Source of the DNA: Bacteroidota bacterium
GTDB lineage: Bacteria > Bacteroidota > Bacteroidia > AKYH767-A > OLB10
Direction of reading: 5' to 3'
DNA: 64,000 nt
NCBI GenBank assembly: GCA_023251535.1
Contig: JAHEYP010000002.1
Coordinates: forward strand, 1 to 64,000
Below are positions 5,728-53,341 of the stretch, in pieces. The position numbers were made by a program, and so were the translations under genes. The notes beneath the pieces were generated by a model, which was given only the letters and a program-made list of their open reading frames with translations, searched no databases and was not told the DNA's origin. The first letter of the stretch is position 1. Each line of letters starts with the position of its first letter.

Positions 5728-5770
5728 TGGAAAGGGGGTTTATAAAAAGTATTTTAAACACTAATCATTT

Positions 5771-5830
5771 CCCCAACATTCAATCATTCAGTCATTCAAT
5801 CATTCAGTCATTTATTTCATTCAGTCATTT
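5771..5830. repeat. CATTCAATCATTCAGT-type repeat, right arm
   Basis: Starts CCCCAACATT and continues as alternating TCATTCAA and TCATTCAG units followed by two copies of TCATTTATTTCA up to the pntA1 stop codon. It is the inverted counterpart of 5285-5323. Confidence 0.7.
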
Positions 5831-17739: not shown

Positions 17740-18531
17740 ATGAAAAAAATACTTCTCTTATCACTCTGTTTATCACTTGCCGGAATCAGTAATGCGCAAG
17801 AAGTTTTAACCGACAAACAAGGTCACCCGATATTGCCGAAAGCAGGCGATTATAGTCTAGGTTTCGATGCTGCGCCTTTTATTACTTACTTCGGAAACCT
17901 CTTTAACCACGGATCTAATAATTCGCCTGAAGCGCTATTTACACAGCAACATCCCATGACCATTTCGGGAATGTATCTCAAGAAAGATGACTTGGCCTAC
18001 AGAGGGAAAATACGTGTCGGATTCGGAACCGAAAAATCAGATACAATGGTTCAAAAGAATGGAAGTACTAATCCCAATGAAACCGTTGCCAACGAAACCA
18101 AACGCAATACCAGTAATGTTACCTTGGGATTCGGCATTCAAAAGTGGAGAGGTTATGGAAGACTGAGAGCATTTTACGGAGGAGAAATTTTATTCGGAGT
18201 AGGTACCGACAAAACGACCTATACTTACGGAAATGCATTAAGTAACGAAAATCAAGATACACGAAATACTTCCTATAAACCAGGCAATACAATTGCGTTT
18301 TCATTACGCGGAATTATTGGCGTTGAATACTTCTTTGCTCCGAAAGTTTCATTGAGTGCTGAATACGGCTGGGGACCATCAGTAGCGTCGAAAGGACAAG
18401 GAGAATTGGTACGTGAAAAATGGAATGGAGGAGGACTCGAAACTGTTACCACCAACACCGGAAAATCATCTAAATTCTTATTCGACAACGACAATAACGG
18501 AGGATCAATTAACTTGAACTTTTATTTTTAA
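17740..18531 (+). CDS. Predicted outer-membrane beta-barrel protein
   Basis: A 263-residue protein with a clear signal peptide (residues 1-19, ending SNAQ). The mature part has alternating-residue strands and glycines (FGTEKSDT, VTLGFGIQKWRGYGRLRAFYGGEILFGVGT, SLRGIIGVEYFFAPKVSLSAEYGWG) and ends in NLNFYF with a terminal Phe, the signature recognised by the Bam machinery. Function is unknown; it resembles small OmpA-like or porin-like barrels. A TCATTCAG-type repeat tract follows directly after the stop. Confidence 0.75.
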   Translation: MKKILLLSLCLSLAGISNAQEVLTDKQGHPILPKAGDYSLGFDAAPFITYFGNLFNHGSNNSPEALFTQQHPMTISGMYLKKDDLAYRGKIRVGFGTEKSDTMVQKNGSTNPNETVANETKRNTSNVTLGFGIQKWRGYGRLRAFYGGEILFGVGTDKTTYTYGNALSNENQDTRNTSYKPGNTIAFSLRGIIGVEYFFAPKVSLSAEYGWGPSVASKGQGELVREKWNGGGLETVTTNTGKSSKFLFDNDNNGGSINLNFYF

Positions 18532-18533
18532 TT

Positions 18534-18640
18534 ACATTCAGTCATTCAATCAATCACTCATTCAATCATTCAGTCATTCAGTCATTCAATCATTCAATCA
18601 TTCAGTCATTCATCCCTTCAGTCATTCACTCACTGCCCTC
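18534..18640. repeat. TCATTCAG/TCATTCAA degenerate tandem tract
   Basis: About twelve head-to-tail units of the form (A/G)TCATTCA with small variations (ATCACTCATTC, TCATCCCTTCAG) between two convergent genes. The same unit occurs at 5285, 5771, 43227, 43446 and 45053. Confidence 0.8.
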
Positions 18641-19169
18641 ACTGCCCAACATACTCTTCCCATTTCTTGGTTTTATAAATATCCTCACCAAAATATTTTA
18701 AAATTGGGATTAACTGCTCAGGTGTTTGATATCCCGGTAAGGGAGTTAGCAATTGGTATTTTTCATCCATGAAAATAAAAGAAGGATAGCTCATTTTTCC
18801 CTGTAAGAGCGAAAGAGCTAATTCGTTCGATTTGTAATCAGATTTATAAACAAATTCTTTTCCTTTAAAACGAATGGTATCTTTTGTTTCTGCGTCCAAT
18901 TTTACGGCATAATAATGATCGTTCATGTAGCGCACAACAGCAGTATCCTTAAAGGTAGAAGCATCCATGCGTTTACACCATCCGCACCATTGCGTATAGG
19001 TATCGATAAATATTTTCTTCGGTGCTTTATCGTTCAATGCAACCGCTTGCTCAAAACTCATCCAATGAATTCCATTGGGATCGTATTTTTCATGCTCAGT
19101 TTGAGCATTACAAGAAGAAATGGAGAAATAACTTAGTAGAATTATAAAACTGAATATTTTTTTCATCAT
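18639..19169 (-). CDS. Thioredoxin-fold lipoprotein (DUF255/SoxW-like)
   Basis: An envelope thioredoxin-like protein of ~176 residues. The N-terminal hydrophobic stretch ends in a lipobox-like SISSC, so it is probably a lipoprotein. The redox site TYTQWCGWCKRMD (CxxC) lies about residues 62-74, followed by DTAVVRYMNDHYYAVKLDAE and the cis-Pro region MSYPSFIF. It is likely a periplasmic disulfide reductase or oxidase. ATG 19169 (MMKKIF) is preferred over ATG 19187 because the signal sequence starts there. It is 36 bp after the POT transporter on the same strand. Confidence 0.85.
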   Translation of the reverse strand: MMKKIFSFIILLSYFSISSCNAQTEHEKYDPNGIHWMSFEQAVALNDKAPKKIFIDTYTQWCGWCKRMDASTFKDTAVVRYMNDHYYAVKLDAETKDTIRFKGKEFVYKSDYKSNELALSLLQGKMSYPSFIFMDEKYQLLTPLPGYQTPEQLIPILKYFGEDIYKTKKWEEYVGQ

Positions 19170-29825: not shown

Positions 29826-30099
29826 CAACGATTGGAATACAGGATAAAACATTTTCCCTCTTCCAACGCGCTACAGCCGCGCGATGGCGCAGGCTTTTTC
29901 CTGCAGTGGGAGAATTTAGCCGCTGTAAATTTTTTAGCGGGAACGATTTCAACTCCAACGGAAAGAAACAAACTCGGCCTGAAAGAAAACCTCTTCAGGC
30001 CTCAAACAGTGTTTCTTTCTATCGTTGTCGTTCTCATCGTTCTTTCCGCAAAAATTTAAGGCGGACGTTCTGCTTCGAATAGAGATTCAGATATACCGA
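29826..30099 (+). repeat. Dispersed 0.3-kb repeat, copy 1
   Basis: Begins near ACGATTGGAATACAGGATAA and ends near GATTCAGATATACCG. The same sequence recurs inverted at 52829-53127. Shared blocks include the left ~60 bp, a central ~55-bp block around GGGAACGATTTCAACTCCAA, and the right ~75 bp. Between them, internal hairpins differ in sequence and length between copies (here GCAGG/CCTGC and GGCCTGAA/TTCAGGCC). Two short open frames here change frame relative to copy 2, so it is unlikely to code for protein. Confidence 0.85.
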
Positions 30100-30498
30100 T
30101 TCAAAAATGAAACGTTGAAAAAAAATCTAGATTATATTGGAGAAGATATAATTCTTGGGATTTGACTTTTGCAATTATTAGCTATTCTGCATTCCCAATA
30201 GTTTTCGGGACTGAGTTTTTCTTTGTTTATTTAATTTTGTTTGAGAGAATTCAATGTAGGCCCCTGTTGTAGCAGAAATTCAAAATTTAATCGGTAGAAT
30301 CCTTAAAATAAGTTAATTGATATTATCCAATAATCAATTTTGAAACTACTTGTAACGATGATTTAGTCATCAAAATTTAGCTTTACAAAAACAAAAAACA
30401 TAACTTTAATCCCTTTCAACCGACATTCACCCCCAATTTTCTGAAGTTTACACAAAAAACGAGCATGGCTTTTTAGGTTGATATAACTTGCATGCATT
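30100..30498. other. A+T-rich intergenic region
   Basis: About 400 bp of A+T-rich sequence between the repeat and the next gene. I see no convincing reading frame, RNA gene or hairpin terminator; it must contain the promoter of the 30499 gene. Confidence 0.5.
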
Positions 30499-36255: not shown

Positions 36256-37920
36256 ATGAAAAAAATAATTCTAATCTCAATATTGTTTATAACAAATTAT
36301 GCACAATCCCAAACATGGCAATGGGCAGTTAGCTGTGGCAAAAGCCTTGGTGATGATATTGGAACGCTTGCTATTGATAATAATTCAAATCTCTATCTAA
36401 GTAGTTTTTTTTATACCACTCAAGGCGTGTATGGTAACGACACTTTGATCCCCAGCGGGATTAACGATATTGCGTTTTCCAAGGTAGATAATAATGGTAA
36501 TTTTATCTGGACAAAACAGATAGGAGGTAATAATATAGGTCCAGGCATTGAGAGAGCTTCTGTTTATTTTGACCCAGCTTCCAGTAGTTTATTGCTTTCT
36601 GGCGAGTTTTATGGTAATATATCGCTTGGTAATAATACTTTAACTTCTGTTGGTGAGAAGGACATATTCCTTTCAAAATTTGATGCAAATGGAAATTGTA
36701 TATGGGCGGTAAAAGCTGGTGGAATTGGTAATGACGATGCCAGATTTATTACTACGGATGCAAATGGTAACATTTACTTAATTGGTCAAGTAGGGGATAC
36801 CGCATTTTTTGATGCACACTCTATTCATCGAAGTTACTATTTTGCAAAATATAATAATGTAGGCAATTGTTTATGGGTAAATAATATACTTGATAACCCA
36901 ATGTTGGTACAACCAGATGCATATTTTTCAAGTATATCAAATTTTAATAATGAAGTTCTTCTATCAGGATGGACAACCAATGATACTGTAGTATTTGCAA
37001 AGGATACATTGTTTGCAAATAGCCTTTATGGATATGATTTAATGCTTGCTAAGTTTGATTTAAATGGAAATCTTACATGGTCTAAATTAGATGGAGGCGG
37101 CGTTCTAGAATCTACAACCGGAGCTAAATACGATAACTCAGGGAATATATATGCAACTGGTTCAATGGGAGGTGATACAGCTTATTTTGGAAGTATAATG
37201 TTACCAAATGATCCAGGAAGCGAAATGTTTCTTGTAAAATATGACAATAGTGGTAATGAGTTATGGGCTAGGCAAACTATTAATTCCAATAACTATAGAT
37301 CAAAAGGATTCTCCGTTTCACAATTAGATGGTAGTATTTATTTAACAGGTAATTTTCAAGGTACATTAACAATGGGTAACTTTACTGTAAGTAACGTTTG
37401 GGGAGTTGATGTAGATTTGTTCATAGCAAGATATAGTGCAAATGGTGATTGTCTTGGTTTAAGAAATGTACGAGTAGATTCACCTGCTCCTAACCCGGGC
37501 GGAGGGATATCTATAGCGCAGGATGCAAGTAATAATTGCTTTGTAGCTGGTCAGTTTAATGGAACTTCATATTTTGATAGCTATTCAATTACGAGTGTAG
37601 CACAAAAAGATATTTTCATCGCCAAATCAGATGCGATCACCGGACTTGGAGGTCAAAATAGGGTAGTGCAAAATCAACTTATTATTTACGCCAACCCTAA
37701 CAAAGGAACCTTCAACATAAAAGTTCCCGATGAAATTAAATCGTTCAAACAGGCTTGGCTTTTTGTATATGATATGTCAGGAAAAGAAATAGCCCGATTT
37801 AATTTAGACAATGAAAGCGATACCCCGCATTTTGATATTTCCAATTCAAATCCCGGTTCATATAGTGTTAAATTGGTGCAGGGTGAGAAAGTTTATTCCG
37901 GTAAAATGGTGGTTGAATAA
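36256..37920 (+). CDS. SBBP-type beta-propeller T9SS protein, paralogue 1
   Basis: A 554-residue secreted repeat protein. Signal peptide (1-18, ending YAQS) then SQTWQWAVSCG. About eight repeats of ~45-60 residues follow the scheme GNxYLxGxFxG...FG...LxSxGxxDxFLxKFDxNGNCxWA, as in SBBP beta-propeller repeats. The T9SS type A sorting domain starts at YANPNKGTFNIKVPDEIKS (~residue 475). First of three tandem paralogues; the middles differ but the sorting domains are nearly identical. It begins 6 bp after the glycoside hydrolase stop, so they may be co-transcribed. Likely surface-anchored; ligand unknown. Confidence 0.85.
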   Translation: MKKIILISILFITNYAQSQTWQWAVSCGKSLGDDIGTLAIDNNSNLYLSSFFYTTQGVYGNDTLIPSGINDIAFSKVDNNGNFIWTKQIGGNNIGPGIERASVYFDPASSSLLLSGEFYGNISLGNNTLTSVGEKDIFLSKFDANGNCIWAVKAGGIGNDDARFITTDANGNIYLIGQVGDTAFFDAHSIHRSYYFAKYNNVGNCLWVNNILDNPMLVQPDAYFSSISNFNNEVLLSGWTTNDTVVFAKDTLFANSLYGYDLMLAKFDLNGNLTWSKLDGGGVLESTTGAKYDNSGNIYATGSMGGDTAYFGSIMLPNDPGSEMFLVKYDNSGNELWARQTINSNNYRSKGFSVSQLDGSIYLTGNFQGTLTMGNFTVSNVWGVDVDLFIARYSANGDCLGLRNVRVDSPAPNPGGGISIAQDASNNCFVAGQFNGTSYFDSYSITSVAQKDIFIAKSDAITGLGGQNRVVQNQLIIYANPNKGTFNIKVPDEIKSFKQAWLFVYDMSGKEIARFNLDNESDTPHFDISNSNPGSYSVKLVQGEKVYSGKMVVE

Positions 37921-38058
37921 AAGCGGTAGCAATCAAAAAAATGATTAAAAAAAATTAAATTTGGATAACAATGATGGTTTTGCAAACTATATAGATTAAT
38001 GAAGAAAATCATTAAAGTTTTATTTTTGTATTTTTTCTTTGTCCTTAATCAAGGCTAC
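37780..38058 (+). repeat. 279-bp direct repeat, copy 1
   Basis: Reads as base-for-base identical with 39481-39759. It covers the last ~47 codons of paralogue 1, the 78-bp spacer and the first 20 codons of paralogue 2. Confidence 0.92.
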
Positions 38059-39621
38059 TCCCAGTCTTGGCAATGGGCAGATCACCTAGGTAGTTCGTAT
38101 AATCAATATTCAGAAAGAGGATTGATTACCACAGATGGATCCAATGTATATATGATTGGATCTTATAGTGGGACATTAGATTTGGGCTTTGATACCATTT
38201 ATGGTGGTGGTGGGAATGATATTATGATGGCAAAATTTGATGGAAGTGGCAACGGTATTTGGGCAAAAACTTTGGGTAGCGGTAATAATCTGCCATATGA
38301 ATGGGAAGATGCTAATGGGATTTATGATCCAATTGGAAATTGTTTATACGTTGCAGGTAATTTTTATCAAACAATAAATTTTGGTTCAAATTTGTCCTTA
38401 ACTTCTATTGGTGGTTCAGATGTTTTTTTAGCAAAGTTTAATTTAAATGGAAATTGTATTTGGGCTAAACGCGCAGGTGGTATTGCAGATGATAATGCAA
38501 GACTATATGTTAGTCCCAATGGTTTACCTTATTTAGTAGCGGAAACAAAAGATTCGGCAAATTTTGGCAGTCTTTCTCTGCCATCTGGTGGTTGTATTGC
38601 AAAATATGATACAAGTGGAAACTGCCTATGGGCGTCATATAAATATAATTTGGTTGATTCCAATTCACTTAAACTTGGTTTTATTAATGATGACTTGCTT
38701 TTGTATGGAAGTTTTCGTTCTGCATTATTTATACTTGATACGGCTTCAATTCAAAATTTTGGTGATCAAGACATTTTTGTTGCAAGAGCGGATTCAAATG
38801 CAAATGTTAAATGGATAAAACATTATGGAGAAAGCGGTTGGGATGTGGTAAATAATTTGGCAATTGATGGAAATAACAATATTTATAGTTTAATTTCTTT
38901 TCAAAATATTATTACAATTGATGGAAATCATTTGACAAGTTCTGGTAACGGAGATATGGTATGGTTAAAATTTGATCAAAATGGAATTTTAACATCGTAT
39001 AAACAAATTAGTTCTAATGGTTATGTTTATCCCATATGTACTAAGTGTGATAATGATGGCAATTTGTATGTGTCAGGATTTTTGAATGGTAATGTAAATT
39101 TTGATTCCTTTAGTATTAATTCCAGTAATCCTTATGAATTGTTTTTAACTCGATTTGATGCAGATGGCAATATATTAGGGCTTAAAAATATTGCCAATGC
39201 TCAACCAACCAGTATTGAAATAGACAATTTTGGAAACGTTTTTTGTGCTGGCGGATTTCAAAATATTGTTACAATTGGATTAAACACATTTTCAAGTTTA
39301 GGTTCTTGGGATATTTTTATTGCAAAAACAGGTTCTATTACCGGCATTGTTGGCGAAGGAAGAATAACAAAAAATAAACTAGTTATTTACGCCAACCCTA
39401 ACAAAGGCACCTTCAACATAAAAGTTCCCGATGAAATTAAATCGTTCAAACAAGCTTGGCTTTATGTATATGATGTTTCGGGAAAAGAAATAGCCCGATT
39501 TAATTTAGACAATGAAAGCGATACCCCGCATTTTGATATTTCCAATTCAAATCCCGGTTCATATAGTGTTAAATTGGTGCAGGGTGAGAAAGTTTATTCC
39601 GGTAAAATGGTGGTTGAATAA
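37999..39621 (+). CDS. SBBP-type beta-propeller T9SS protein, paralogue 2
   Basis: A 540-residue paralogue of its neighbours: signal peptide (MKKIIKVLFLYFFFVLNQGY), mature start SQSWQWADHLGSS, repeats such as DIMMAKFDGSGNGIWAKTLG, DVFLAKFNLNGNCIWAKRAG and GNLYVSGFLNGNVNFDSF, and a C-terminal sorting domain (YANPNKGTFNIKVPDEIKS to KMVVE). The signal peptide coding region is identical to that of paralogue 3, and the last ~47 codons to those of paralogue 1, while the repeat region has diverged. Expression presumably depends on the 78-bp A+T-rich spacer, which is duplicated before paralogue 3. Confidence 0.85.
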   Translation: MKKIIKVLFLYFFFVLNQGYSQSWQWADHLGSSYNQYSERGLITTDGSNVYMIGSYSGTLDLGFDTIYGGGGNDIMMAKFDGSGNGIWAKTLGSGNNLPYEWEDANGIYDPIGNCLYVAGNFYQTINFGSNLSLTSIGGSDVFLAKFNLNGNCIWAKRAGGIADDNARLYVSPNGLPYLVAETKDSANFGSLSLPSGGCIAKYDTSGNCLWASYKYNLVDSNSLKLGFINDDLLLYGSFRSALFILDTASIQNFGDQDIFVARADSNANVKWIKHYGESGWDVVNNLAIDGNNNIYSLISFQNIITIDGNHLTSSGNGDMVWLKFDQNGILTSYKQISSNGYVYPICTKCDNDGNLYVSGFLNGNVNFDSFSINSSNPYELFLTRFDADGNILGLKNIANAQPTSIEIDNFGNVFCAGGFQNIVTIGLNTFSSLGSWDIFIAKTGSITGIVGEGRITKNKLVIYANPNKGTFNIKVPDEIKSFKQAWLYVYDVSGKEIARFNLDNESDTPHFDISNSNPGSYSVKLVQGEKVYSGKMVVE

Positions 39622-39759
39622 AAGCGGTAGCAATCAAAAAAATGATTAAAAAAAATTAAATTTGGATAACAATGATGGTTTTGCAAACTATATAGATTAA
39701 TGAAGAAAATCATTAAAGTTTTATTTTTGTATTTTTTCTTTGTCCTTAATCAAGGCTAC
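39481..39759 (+). repeat. 279-bp direct repeat, copy 2
   Basis: Second copy, starting 1701 bp after the first (567 codons exactly). It covers the end of paralogue 2, the spacer and the signal peptide of paralogue 3. Recombination between copies would remove or add one whole gene in frame. Confidence 0.92.
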
Positions 39760-41361
39760 GCCCAATCTTGGCAATGGGCAGTTAGTGCTGGTGGAATTAA
39801 TAGAGATGTTGGTGGTTTTAGTTGTATTGACGCATTGGGTAATATTTATTTAACAGGCAATGTTGATAGTAATATTGTATTCTTTCAAACTGATACATTA
39901 CAGGTAAGTGGAATCAATGATATTTTTATTGCAAAATATGATATTAGTGGTAATGAAATTTGGGTAAAATCTTTTGGTGGAAACTACAATAATCAATTTC
40001 AACAAAAGTATGAGGGGGTTAGTAAGCCTGTCATGGATCCAACTTCAAATTATTTTTATATCACAGGATCATTTGTCGGATCTTGTAGTTTTGGGACTAC
40101 AAATCTATTTTCTCAAGGAGGAATTAGCGATAAAGAAATATTTGTCGCAAAATTTGATTTGAATGGAAACTGTATATGGGCTAAAAGTGCAGGTAGTTCA
40201 GGTGATGATGAATCTTACGGATTAGCTGTCCGTTCAAATGGGGAAATTTATATATCAGGAACTTTGAAAGGAAATGGAGTATTTGATTCAATAAGTATTT
40301 TTAATGGAGGATTTTTAGCAAAGTTTGATAGTGCTGGGAATTGTATATTTTCTAAGATAATTTGTAATGGAATAAATTTGTTCTCTGGTGCAAGTGGGGT
40401 ACCTTGGGTTATAAATAATTTTAACAATAGTATTTTTTTGGTAATTGGGAAAGTTTCGGATACATTAATATTAGATACAAGTTCAATAGTAATACCCTCT
40501 AACAACAGCTTTATTCTAGCAAAGTTTGATTTAAATGGAAATATCCAATCATATAAAGTTTGTGGTGGCCCTAATCCCGAATTTGGAGAATTGAGTATTG
40601 ATAATAATGGTAATTGCTATTTTGTAAGTCGATTTTTTGGTGGAGAAGCAATTTTTGAAAATGATACAATTCATGCATTTGGTAATACTGATTTCTTTTT
40701 AGCAAAATACGATTTCAACTTAAATTTTCAATGGGTTCGTCAAAGTCATGCTAGTATTAATGCAAGAGCTATCGGATGCTCTTCAGATTTAAATGGCAAT
40801 GTTTATATTTCAGGAAGTTTTTCAGGAAGTGCATTATTTGGAACTTATGGAATTACTTCAAATACTTCAGAAGATTTATTTGTTGCTAGATATGATAAAA
40901 ATGGAAATTGTCTAGGCGTAAGACATCAAGGACAAGGTTTGGCATATGGTGTCCAAACTATAAGTGATGGTTCATGTATCGTTACAGGTTCTTATGTTGG
41001 AAATGTTACATTTGGTAGTTTATCAACTTTGATAAATCATGGAGATAAAGATATTTTCATTGCCAAATCAGATGCGATCACCGGACTTGGAGGTCAAAAT
41101 AGGGTAGTGCAAAATCAACTTATTATTTACGCCAACCCTAACAAAGGCACCTTCAACATAAAAGTTCCCGATGAAATTAAATCGTTCAAACAGGCTTGGC
41201 TTTTTGTATATGATGTGTCAGGAAAAGAAATAGCCCGATTTAATTTAGACAATGAAAGCGATACCCCGCATTTTGATATTTCCAATTCAAATCCCGGTTC
41301 ATATAGTGTTAAATTGGTGCAGGGTGAGAAAATGTACAGCGGACAAATGATAGTGGAGTAA
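39700..41361 (+). CDS. SBBP-type beta-propeller T9SS protein, paralogue 3
   Basis: A 553-residue third member of the tandem set. Signal peptide identical in its first 20 codons to paralogue 2; mature start AQSWQWAVSAGG; repeats such as DIFIAKYDISGNEIWVKSFGG, EIFVAKFDLNGNCIWAKSAG and GNVYISGSFSGSALFG. From IAKSDAITGLGGQNR the C-terminus matches paralogue 1 nearly perfectly, but the last ~10 codons differ (KMYSGQMIVE instead of KVYSGKMVVE). So this gene combines a paralogue-2-like 5' end with a paralogue-1-like 3' end, a mosaic expected from gene conversion. Confidence 0.85.
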   Translation: MKKIIKVLFLYFFFVLNQGYAQSWQWAVSAGGINRDVGGFSCIDALGNIYLTGNVDSNIVFFQTDTLQVSGINDIFIAKYDISGNEIWVKSFGGNYNNQFQQKYEGVSKPVMDPTSNYFYITGSFVGSCSFGTTNLFSQGGISDKEIFVAKFDLNGNCIWAKSAGSSGDDESYGLAVRSNGEIYISGTLKGNGVFDSISIFNGGFLAKFDSAGNCIFSKIICNGINLFSGASGVPWVINNFNNSIFLVIGKVSDTLILDTSSIVIPSNNSFILAKFDLNGNIQSYKVCGGPNPEFGELSIDNNGNCYFVSRFFGGEAIFENDTIHAFGNTDFFLAKYDFNLNFQWVRQSHASINARAIGCSSDLNGNVYISGSFSGSALFGTYGITSNTSEDLFVARYDKNGNCLGVRHQGQGLAYGVQTISDGSCIVTGSYVGNVTFGSLSTLINHGDKDIFIAKSDAITGLGGQNRVVQNQLIIYANPNKGTFNIKVPDEIKSFKQAWLFVYDVSGKEIARFNLDNESDTPHFDISNSNPGSYSVKLVQGEKMYSGQMIVE

Positions 41362-43226: not shown

Positions 43227-43345
43227 GAACTGAATGACTGAATGATTGAATGATTGAATGGATGGATGACTGAATGATTGAATGACTGAGGGAATGAATG
43301 ACTGAATGATTGAATGAGGGTCCAACCGAGATCTTTGGTAATGTT
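43227..43345. repeat. TGAATGA(C/T)TGAATGA tract plus GTCCAACCGAGATC tail, copy A
   Basis: Tandem (A/C)TGAATGA(C/T)TGAATG units with GGATGGATGAC interruptions up to ~43318, then GGGTCCAACCGAGATCTTTGG. A second copy of tract plus tail is at 43446-43513. Confidence 0.75.
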
Positions 43346-43445
43346 ATGCATTTCGGTTTTATTGAAAAGTCTTTGGGGCGAAATTCTAATTCATTTAATT
43401 CCTGTAACCCAAAATCTATCGCCTAAAATCTATCATCTATCGCCA

Positions 43446-44746: not shown

Positions 44747-45015
44747 ATTGGCTGACGCGGTTGGGGCTAGCGCGGTTGGGCCATTCGGCCGGAACACAGA
44801 TGAATGGATTTGAAAAGGATTTAAAAGGATTTCTTGCGCTGATGGTGGCTGACGCGGTTGGGCCATTCGGCCGGAACACAGATGAATGGATTTGAAATGG
44901 ATTTAAAAGGATTGGCTGACGCGGTTTGGGCTTACGCGGTTGGGCCATTCGGCCGGAACACCCCATTGGGACAAGCAGATGAATGGATTTGAAATGGATT
45001 TAAAAGGATAGGCTG
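44747..45015. repeat. Tandem ~70-100-bp intergenic repeat
   Basis: Three imperfect copies of a unit starting GGCTGACGCGGTT, containing GGGCCATTCGGCCGGAACA and ending GATGAATGGATTTGAAATGG plus ATTTAAAAGGAT, begin near 44749, 44846 and 44912; a partial fourth starts at 45011. Units differ by small insertions (GGGCTAGCGCGGTT; CCCATTGGGACAAG). GGCC-ATTC-GGCC can fold as a short hairpin. No coding potential is evident. Confidence 0.85.
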
Positions 45016-45052
45016 ACGCGTTATTTATATTAGGAACAATGACCACAAAATT

Positions 45053-45125
45053 CATTCATTCAATCATTCATTCACCCAGTCATTCACTCACTCAATCATT
45101 CATTGATCCCTTCAGTCATTGATTT
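45053..45125. repeat. TCATTCAA/TCATTCAG degenerate tract
   Basis: ATTCATTCATTCAATCATTCATTCACCCAGTCATTC-type tract, same family as at 18534. The rest of 45126-45302 is A+T-rich with AAAATCCAAGATTCAAAATTC-type simple sequence and no gene. Confidence 0.75.
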
Positions 45126-45302
45126 TTATTTTCCGCTTCGCTTAATTGGCCGCTGATGACGCAGATTTACAAGATTTACGCAGATTATTTTCGAATATAA
45201 TTCAAAATCCAAGATTCAAAATTCAAAATCGAATTAAATCTCATATGATTTAGGATACTTTAAAATATTGAGAATTTCAACAGGAACTAAATTCCCAGCC
45301 CA

Positions 45303-52674: not shown

Positions 52675-52828
52675 GTTTAGTTAACGTTCTTAAAAATGGT
52701 TTGCCTTTTTTGTTATAGTTACTGGGCAAACAGAAGGTTTTTGGTCTTTGTGTTTACTTATTCTTGGTGACTTTAATCTCTGTTAATCACCGAATTGTAG
52801 CTTTTTTCAAGCTACAATATTATTGTCG

Positions 52829-53127
52829 AACGGTATATCAGAATCTATATTCGAAGCGGAACGTCCGCCTTAAATTTTTGCGGAAAGAACGATGAGAACG
52901 GAAACGATAGAAAGAAACACTGCCCGAGACATGAAGCGTCGACGCAGGAGACGATTCAGGGCGAGTTTGTTTCTTTCCGTTGGAGTTGAAATCGTTCCCG
53001 CTAAAAAATTTACAGCGGCGGTTTTTTTGCTTACTTTTTCAACTGAAGGAAAAAGTAAGAGCCGTCGCGCGGCTACAGCGCGTTGGAAGAGGGAAAATGT
53101 TTTATCCTGTATTCCTATCATTGAATT
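52829..53127 (-). repeat. Dispersed 0.3-kb repeat, copy 2 (inverted)
   Basis: Reverse complement matches 29826-30099: ends and the central block (GGGAACGATTTCAACTCCAACGGAAAGAAACAAACTCG) are nearly identical. Internal variable parts differ: here CTTACTTTTTC/GAAAAAGTAAG forms a 10-11-bp stem and GCCCTGA...TCTCGGGC closes another loop. The open frame on the minus strand (53121-52870) ends with the same peptide as copy 1 but the frames do not stay aligned. Confidence 0.85.
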
Positions 53128-53341
53128 ATTTTAAGAAGGAATTTGCATCAGAATTGGATTTCAATCAAAATTAGTCATCACTTATTAGACAAGTTAATAG
53201 GGTGATTATAAATCAATGAAAACTTACGGGTTTTCGATTGATTTCTTTCCTCGAGTCTTTAAAAACGAAATACATATAGCGCTAAAAAACGCAGGGTACC
53301 GAAAGACGCAGAAAACCTCAACTCCAAAACTCAATCATTCT
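53128..53341. other. Intergenic sequence after the repeat
   Basis: A+T-rich, no reading frame of note. Together with 52675-52828 and the repeat it forms a 667-bp gene-free stretch between lpxB and ssb. Confidence 0.5.

What the first reader, a model, noticed from the sequence alone, without database searches (positions are those of the whole stretch)
29826..30099. Paired 0.3-kb element with conserved blocks and different internal hairpins
This stretch recurs inverted at 52829-53127. Left (~60 bp), central (~55 bp) and right (~75 bp) blocks are almost identical, but the segments between them differ in sequence and length, and in each copy those segments still fold (GCAGG/CCTGC and GGCCTGAA/TTCAGGCC here; CTTACTTTTTC/GAAAAAGTAAG and GCCC/GGGC there). 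Keeping structure while changing sequence suggests a structured RNA or DNA, for example a small non-autonomous mobile element or a noncoding RNA family, not a passive duplicate. The two copies also form a 23-kb inverted pair that could flip the DNA between them.
Basis: partly seen in the sequence, partly recalled or inferred. Interest (0 to 1): 0.68.

Follow-up and report, generated by a model that had tools for sequence, protein, structure and literature searches.

The report
Structured, cassette-shuffling mini-transposon family
The paired stretch belongs to a previously unannotated family of short gene-less mobile DNA elements in Bacteroidota whose inner part keeps the same folded shape while its sequence changes, swaps cassettes and even flips in place; it looks like a mobile element carrying a conserved structured passenger, whose job is still unknown.

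Summary
The element has about 14 full or partial copies in its own genome and about 20 in a congener. Diverged relatives occur in all but one genome of the genus by covariance model (all seven by BLASTN), and in one or two other Bacteroidia families. A covariance model built only from congeners finds both window copies (E 2e-26 and 1.5e-18). Pairing is conserved by double substitutions: 17 of 48 pairs, against 5.5 in shuffles (0/500). The core sits inside transposon-like ends. In this genus these are ~23-bp inverted repeats resembling those of an IS3-family element. In a distant genome they are a different repeat with mostly perfect 8-bp target duplications and optional extra hairpin modules. 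Between G000 and congener G003, orthologous insertions kept the central blocks (98-100% identical) but exchanged internal cassettes. The core of window copy 2 is inverted in place, while the 23-kb interval is colinear. Best reading: a non-autonomous transposon (MITE) family carrying a selected, structured core that is reshuffled by recombination between copies. Whether the core works as RNA or hairpin DNA is undecided. Rfam, plasmids, phages and viral contigs gave no match.

The parts
29826..30110 (+). copy 1 of the element (core form, cassette alleles A and a; outer arms diverged beyond recognition)
29867..29883 (+). S1 hairpin CGCGC-TACAGCC-GCGCG (stem variable between species, loop TNNAGCC kept)
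   Evidence: read from sequence; same place in relatives
29889..29918 (+). variable cassette 1, allele A (H2 hairpin position)
29919..29975 (+). central conserved block = 5' arm of the long imperfect hairpin, ending AAACTC
29976..30007 (+). variable cassette 2, allele a (cap hairpin GGCCTGAA/TTCAGGCC plus CTCAAAC)
30008..30067 (+). right conserved block = 3' arm of the long imperfect hairpin
29920..30069 (+). covariance-model match (102.4 bits, E 2.2e-26; model built without this genome)
52683..53180 (-). copy 2 of the element with outer arms (left-type arm at 52683-52752 on +, right-type arm about 53135-53175); outer limits approximate
52860..53018 (-). copy 2 core, covariance-model match (76 bits, E 1.5e-18)
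53066..53082 (-). copy 2 S1 hairpin CGCGC-TGTAGCC-GCGCG
   Evidence: read from sequence
53030..53059 (-). copy 2 variable cassette 1, allele B: H2 hairpin CTTACTTTTTC/GAAAAAGTAAG
52784..53092 (-). segment of copy 2 that is inverted relative to the orthologous site in congener G003 (309 bp, 94% identity, flanks colinear)

Best explanation
The two stretches are old insertions of a MITE-like non-autonomous transposon family. The ends (about 23-bp inverted repeats in this genus) would be cut and pasted by a transposase supplied from elsewhere, probably an IS3-family enzyme here and another type in the distant relatives. Inside the ends sits a ~230-nt structured core: S1 hairpin, poly-T/poly-A hairpin, and a long imperfect hairpin with a cap. 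Its fold is under selection as a single-stranded form. Copies exchange the two variable hairpin cassettes, and occasionally the orientation of the core, by recombination or gene conversion between copies; the conserved blocks act as the homology. Shown: multicopy family, covariation, inverted-repeat ends, target duplications in relatives, differing cassettes and an inverted core at orthologous sites. Inferred: transposase identity, gene conversion as the exchange mechanism, and a function of the fold (structured transcript or hairpin DNA bound by a protein).
For: Copies. Ends: 14, 15, 18, 54. Similarity to IS3-family element ends in G003: 20, 82, 83. Mobile relatives in G283 with a different terminal repeat, mostly perfect 8-bp target duplications and optional modules: 43, 54, 55, 59. 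Covariation: 36, 37, 68. Conserved blocks 95-100% while flanks are 51-91% identical at orthologous sites, with cassette alleles swapped (A/a to B/b; B/a to A/b): 51, 56. All four allele combinations present in both genomes: 56. Core inversion: 53, 73, 75. Always intergenic without fixed orientation to genes: 69.
Against: In G000 no clean target duplications were seen, the testable insertions are shared with G003 and no empty site was found, so recent movement is not shown in this genus. No transposase with matching ends was found in G000, and the IS3-like match rests on 17-25 bp found by a pattern search. Copies in G001/G004/G005 have no evident TIR. The near absence of G-U pairs among the changes is unusual for RNA.
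Confidence: 0.78

Rival explanations
1. The core is a multicopy noncoding RNA gene (a trans-acting or processed structured RNA) that is merely carried by transposon ends; selection acts on the RNA.
For: Strong covariation; conserved loop motifs (TNNAGCC, GAACTC...CTCAAACAG) across distant families; the same core with different transposon ends; peripheral helices come and go.
Against: No conserved Bacteroidota -33/-7 promoter in the genus copies (G283 not tested, the script stopped before it); mismatch types show no consistent strand preference (2 G.T v 11 A.C event types in the genus, 5 v 3 in G283); almost no G-U intermediates; no Rfam family.
Confidence: 0.35
2. The fold matters as DNA: a hairpin or cruciform recognised during transposition or replication, as with REPINs.
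For: Changes are almost all full Watson-Crick exchanges with no clear strand bias; random orientation to genes.
Against: In G283 the ends are inverted repeats with 8-bp duplications, a mode that needs no internal hairpin; the Y1 transposase of the genus is flanked by a different repeat, CGCCCCTACAGGGCG.
Confidence: 0.35
3. Apparent covariation is made by template switching inside quasi-palindromes and gene conversion, with no function.
For: Concerted evolution is visible: species-typical variants and cassette exchange.
Against: Conserved bulges and internal loops persist beside matched helices over the genus, which template switching would be expected to erase; the conserved loop motifs are unpaired.
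Confidence: 0.2
4. A 23-kb invertible segment bounded by the two copies.
For: Copies are in inverted orientation in the window.
Against: G003 has the same gene order and orientation across the interval; only the core of copy 2 differs in direction.
Confidence: 0.03

Closest known systems
Bacterial MITEs with long stem-loops (Correia/NEMIS, ERIC, CIR; reviewed in PMC2229807)
   Same: Short, gene-less, intergenic, often with inverted-repeat ends; transcripts predicted to be highly base-paired
   Different: The core here is longer, shows measured pair covariation between species, carries exchangeable hairpin cassettes, and occurs with two unrelated sets of transposon ends
BrickBuilt MITE of Porphyromonas gingivalis (PMC4596501)
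   Same: Bacteroidota, about 19 intergenic copies per genome, inverted-repeat ends
   Different: BrickBuilt is built from 23-bp tandem repeats; no such array here
REPINs / RAYT systems (PMC3116915, PMC2817692)
   Same: Dispersed palindromic noncoding elements; a Y1 transposase is present in every genome of the genus
   Different: The RAYT-like gene here is flanked by CGCCCCTACAGGGCG hairpins, not by this core; the relatives have inverted-repeat ends with 8-bp duplications

Membership tests
MITE (non-autonomous DDE-type transposon) | terminal inverted repeats | tested here: met
   TGAACATCCCTAAATATGGTTGACC / GGTCAACCTATGTTAGGGACGTACA in G000-G003; GGCTCTATNNNGANTNNTGTGGGTAA in G283; copy 1 of the window itself has no recognisable ends
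MITE (non-autonomous DDE-type transposon) | target-site duplications | tested here: inconclusive
   5 of 5 perfect 8-bp duplications in the first G283 copies and in most others read; none clear in G000
MITE (non-autonomous DDE-type transposon) | no transposase gene, multicopy, intergenic | tested here: met
MITE (non-autonomous DDE-type transposon) | an autonomous partner with the same ends | tested here: inconclusive
   IS3-family element in G003 has similar ends; not found in G000; no ISL3 transposase in G283
Known RNA family (Rfam 15) | covariance-model match | tested here: not met
REPIN / RAYT | same hairpin flanks the RAYT gene | tested here: not met
Structured noncoding RNA | covariation beyond chance | tested here: met
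   17 double-changed pairs, 0 of 500 shuffles; slid controls 0-3
Structured noncoding RNA | transcript | not testable with these tools
   no RNA-seq; no conserved promoter found in the genus copies

The most novel reading that the evidence does not exclude
The core is an ancient, selected structured RNA (or hairpin DNA) that survives by repeatedly being packaged between the ends of unrelated transposons, and it diversifies by swapping peripheral hairpin cassettes and flipping in place.
Probability: 0.3. Interest if true: 0.8.

Novelty: new variant of a known kind. Interest (0 to 1): 0.6.

Why it matters
Bacterial MITEs are commonly regarded as decayed insertion sequences, with little constraint expected inside the ends. 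Here the inside is the most conserved part, shows strong pair covariation, is shared between distant Bacteroidia with different transposon ends, and carries different hairpin cassettes at the same site in two species. That makes the question of whether mini-transposons carry functional structured nucleic acid directly testable, and it gives a new covariance model for annotating Bacteroidota intergenic regions.

Tried and rejected
Rfam search of the window and of the relatives: no family for this element. RAYT/REP origin: the Y1 gene is flanked by another hairpin. ISL3 transposase as partner, guessed from the 8-bp duplications and GGCTC ends: none in G283, G000 or G003, with controls ringing. 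The 1.27-kb G283 pair of ends (L256) holds no transposase-like ORF. Plasmids, phages and viral contigs: no match. The genome contigs pattern scan returned the genus's own MAGs plus six records from unrelated taxa that look like chance hits and were not inspected. G132 class hit: a coding-looking stretch without the motif order, taken as chance. 23-kb inversion: interval colinear in G003. Strand test by G.T versus A.C mismatches: suggestive in the genus, not in G283, so inconclusive. Promoter scan: no conserved -33/-7 pair in the genus copies; the script failed before the G283 set.

Full report
CHECK. The two stretches are present as described. Copy 1 (29826-30110 +) and copy 2 (- strand, core 52860-53018) share a left block, a 57-bp central block and a 60-bp right block; two segments between them differ. 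Both fold far better than shuffles (z -6.4, -4.2).

COPY NUMBER AND DISTRIBUTION. BLASTN of copy 1 gives 19 matches in its own genome G000, which resolve to about 14 full or partial copies, and 19 matches in congener G003. A query from a congener reaches all seven genomes of the genus but none of 17 others in the family. A covariance model (R1) built only from 11 cores of G001, G004 and G005 recovers the copies of G000 and G003, with copy 1 at 102 bits (E 2.2e-26) and copy 2 at 76 bits (E 1.5e-18), and misses only G002 within the genus. Of 295 genomes sampled over the class, only two outside the genus have credible hits: G283 (six, later many more) and G240 (one). Named MAGs of the genus are uncultured Bacteroidota bins; the exact genus name was not established.

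ARCHITECTURE. In the genus and in G283 the order is: S1 hairpin with a variable stem and a loop close to TNNAGCC; GGCT; H2 hairpin (TACTTTTT/AAAAAGTA); CCGCTG; a long imperfect hairpin; a cap region between GAACTC and CTCAAACAG; and the return arm ending AAGGCGG. G283 is a different family. The G240 hit has the long hairpin and the GAACTC...CTCAAACAG cap, but its upstream part differs. The A allele of H2 in G000/G003 departs from the TACTTTTT form.

COVARIATION. On 11 congener cores, 17 of 48 pairs carry double changes against 5.5 expected by column shuffles (0 of 500), and 0 to 3 when partners are slid by one to three columns; 95.8% of cells pair. The shuffles do not model relatedness, but the slid controls do keep it. 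Adding the 24 G000/G003 cores gives 20 of 41 pairs with double changes. Almost all changes are full Watson-Crick exchanges. Mismatch types are 2 G.T against 11 A.C in the genus but 5 against 3 in G283, so the functional strand cannot be named.

MOBILITY. Most G000/G003 copies have outer arms with ~23-bp inverted repeats. These resemble the ends of an IS3-family element (rve, HTH_Tnp_1) in G003, which is absent from G000. In G283 the same core lies between other repeats, GGCTCTATNNNGANTNNTGTGGGTAA, of which 73 were found, with perfect 8-bp duplications in five of five first-read copies and in most later ones. The basic G283 element is 315 bp; longer forms of 377 to 540 bp add up to three further modules at fixed places. 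Copies are intergenic and show no fixed orientation to genes.

EXCHANGE AND INVERSION. Two variable segments of the G000/G003 cores occur in two main alleles each, and all four combinations are found in both genomes. At orthologous insertions the alleles often differ: copy 1 is A/a in G000 and B/b in G003; the C35/C75 site is B/a and A/b; two further sites carry an unrelated inner segment (type B) in G000 and the structured core in G003. At copy 2 the alleles are the same type (B/b) in both. The central block is 98-100% identical and the right block 95-100% where flanks are 51-91%. That contrast fits selection on the blocks plus recombination between copies; conversion itself was not observed. 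At copy 2 the 309-bp core is inverted relative to G003 although both flanks are colinear; of the copies with recognisable arms it is the only inverted one. The 23-kb interval between the window copies is colinear in G003.

INTERPRETATION. The best-supported reading is a MITE family whose core is under structural selection. RNA and DNA readings remain about equally likely.

Noticed in passing
L011, L012, L013, L016 (G000): The same outer element can carry an unrelated inner segment (type B) that contains the REP hairpin CGCCCCTACAGGGCG, which also flanks the RAYT-like Y1 transposase gene of G000 and G003.
   Followed up: partly
L022, L023, L025, L104, L121 downstream of the core: In G001/G004/G005 the core is often followed by a second palindromic module (CGGCCTCAGTTTATTCGG...GCAATTTTATCAAGG) and, in several, a terminator-like hairpin.
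   Followed up: no
window 5740-5828, 18506-18658, 43233-43348, 45028-45140: Arrays of 8-bp units (ATTCAATC/ATTCAGTC), mostly in spacers between ORFs and in both orientations.
   Followed up: no
window 36256-41361: Three neighbouring long ORFs with 300-bp near-identical 3' parts (89-97%) and internal ~60-bp repeats.
   Followed up: no
window 44765-44995: Three copies of an 82-bp-period unit beginning GGCTNNCGCGGTTGGGCCATTCGGCCGGAACAC.
   Followed up: no
L022 2854-2927: Flavo-1 RNA (RF01705) above its gathering score, near but separate from the element.
   Followed up: no
CALQOD010000103.1 (G005): MAG labelled Chitinophaga pinensis carries elements of this genus; the label looks doubtful.
   Followed up: no
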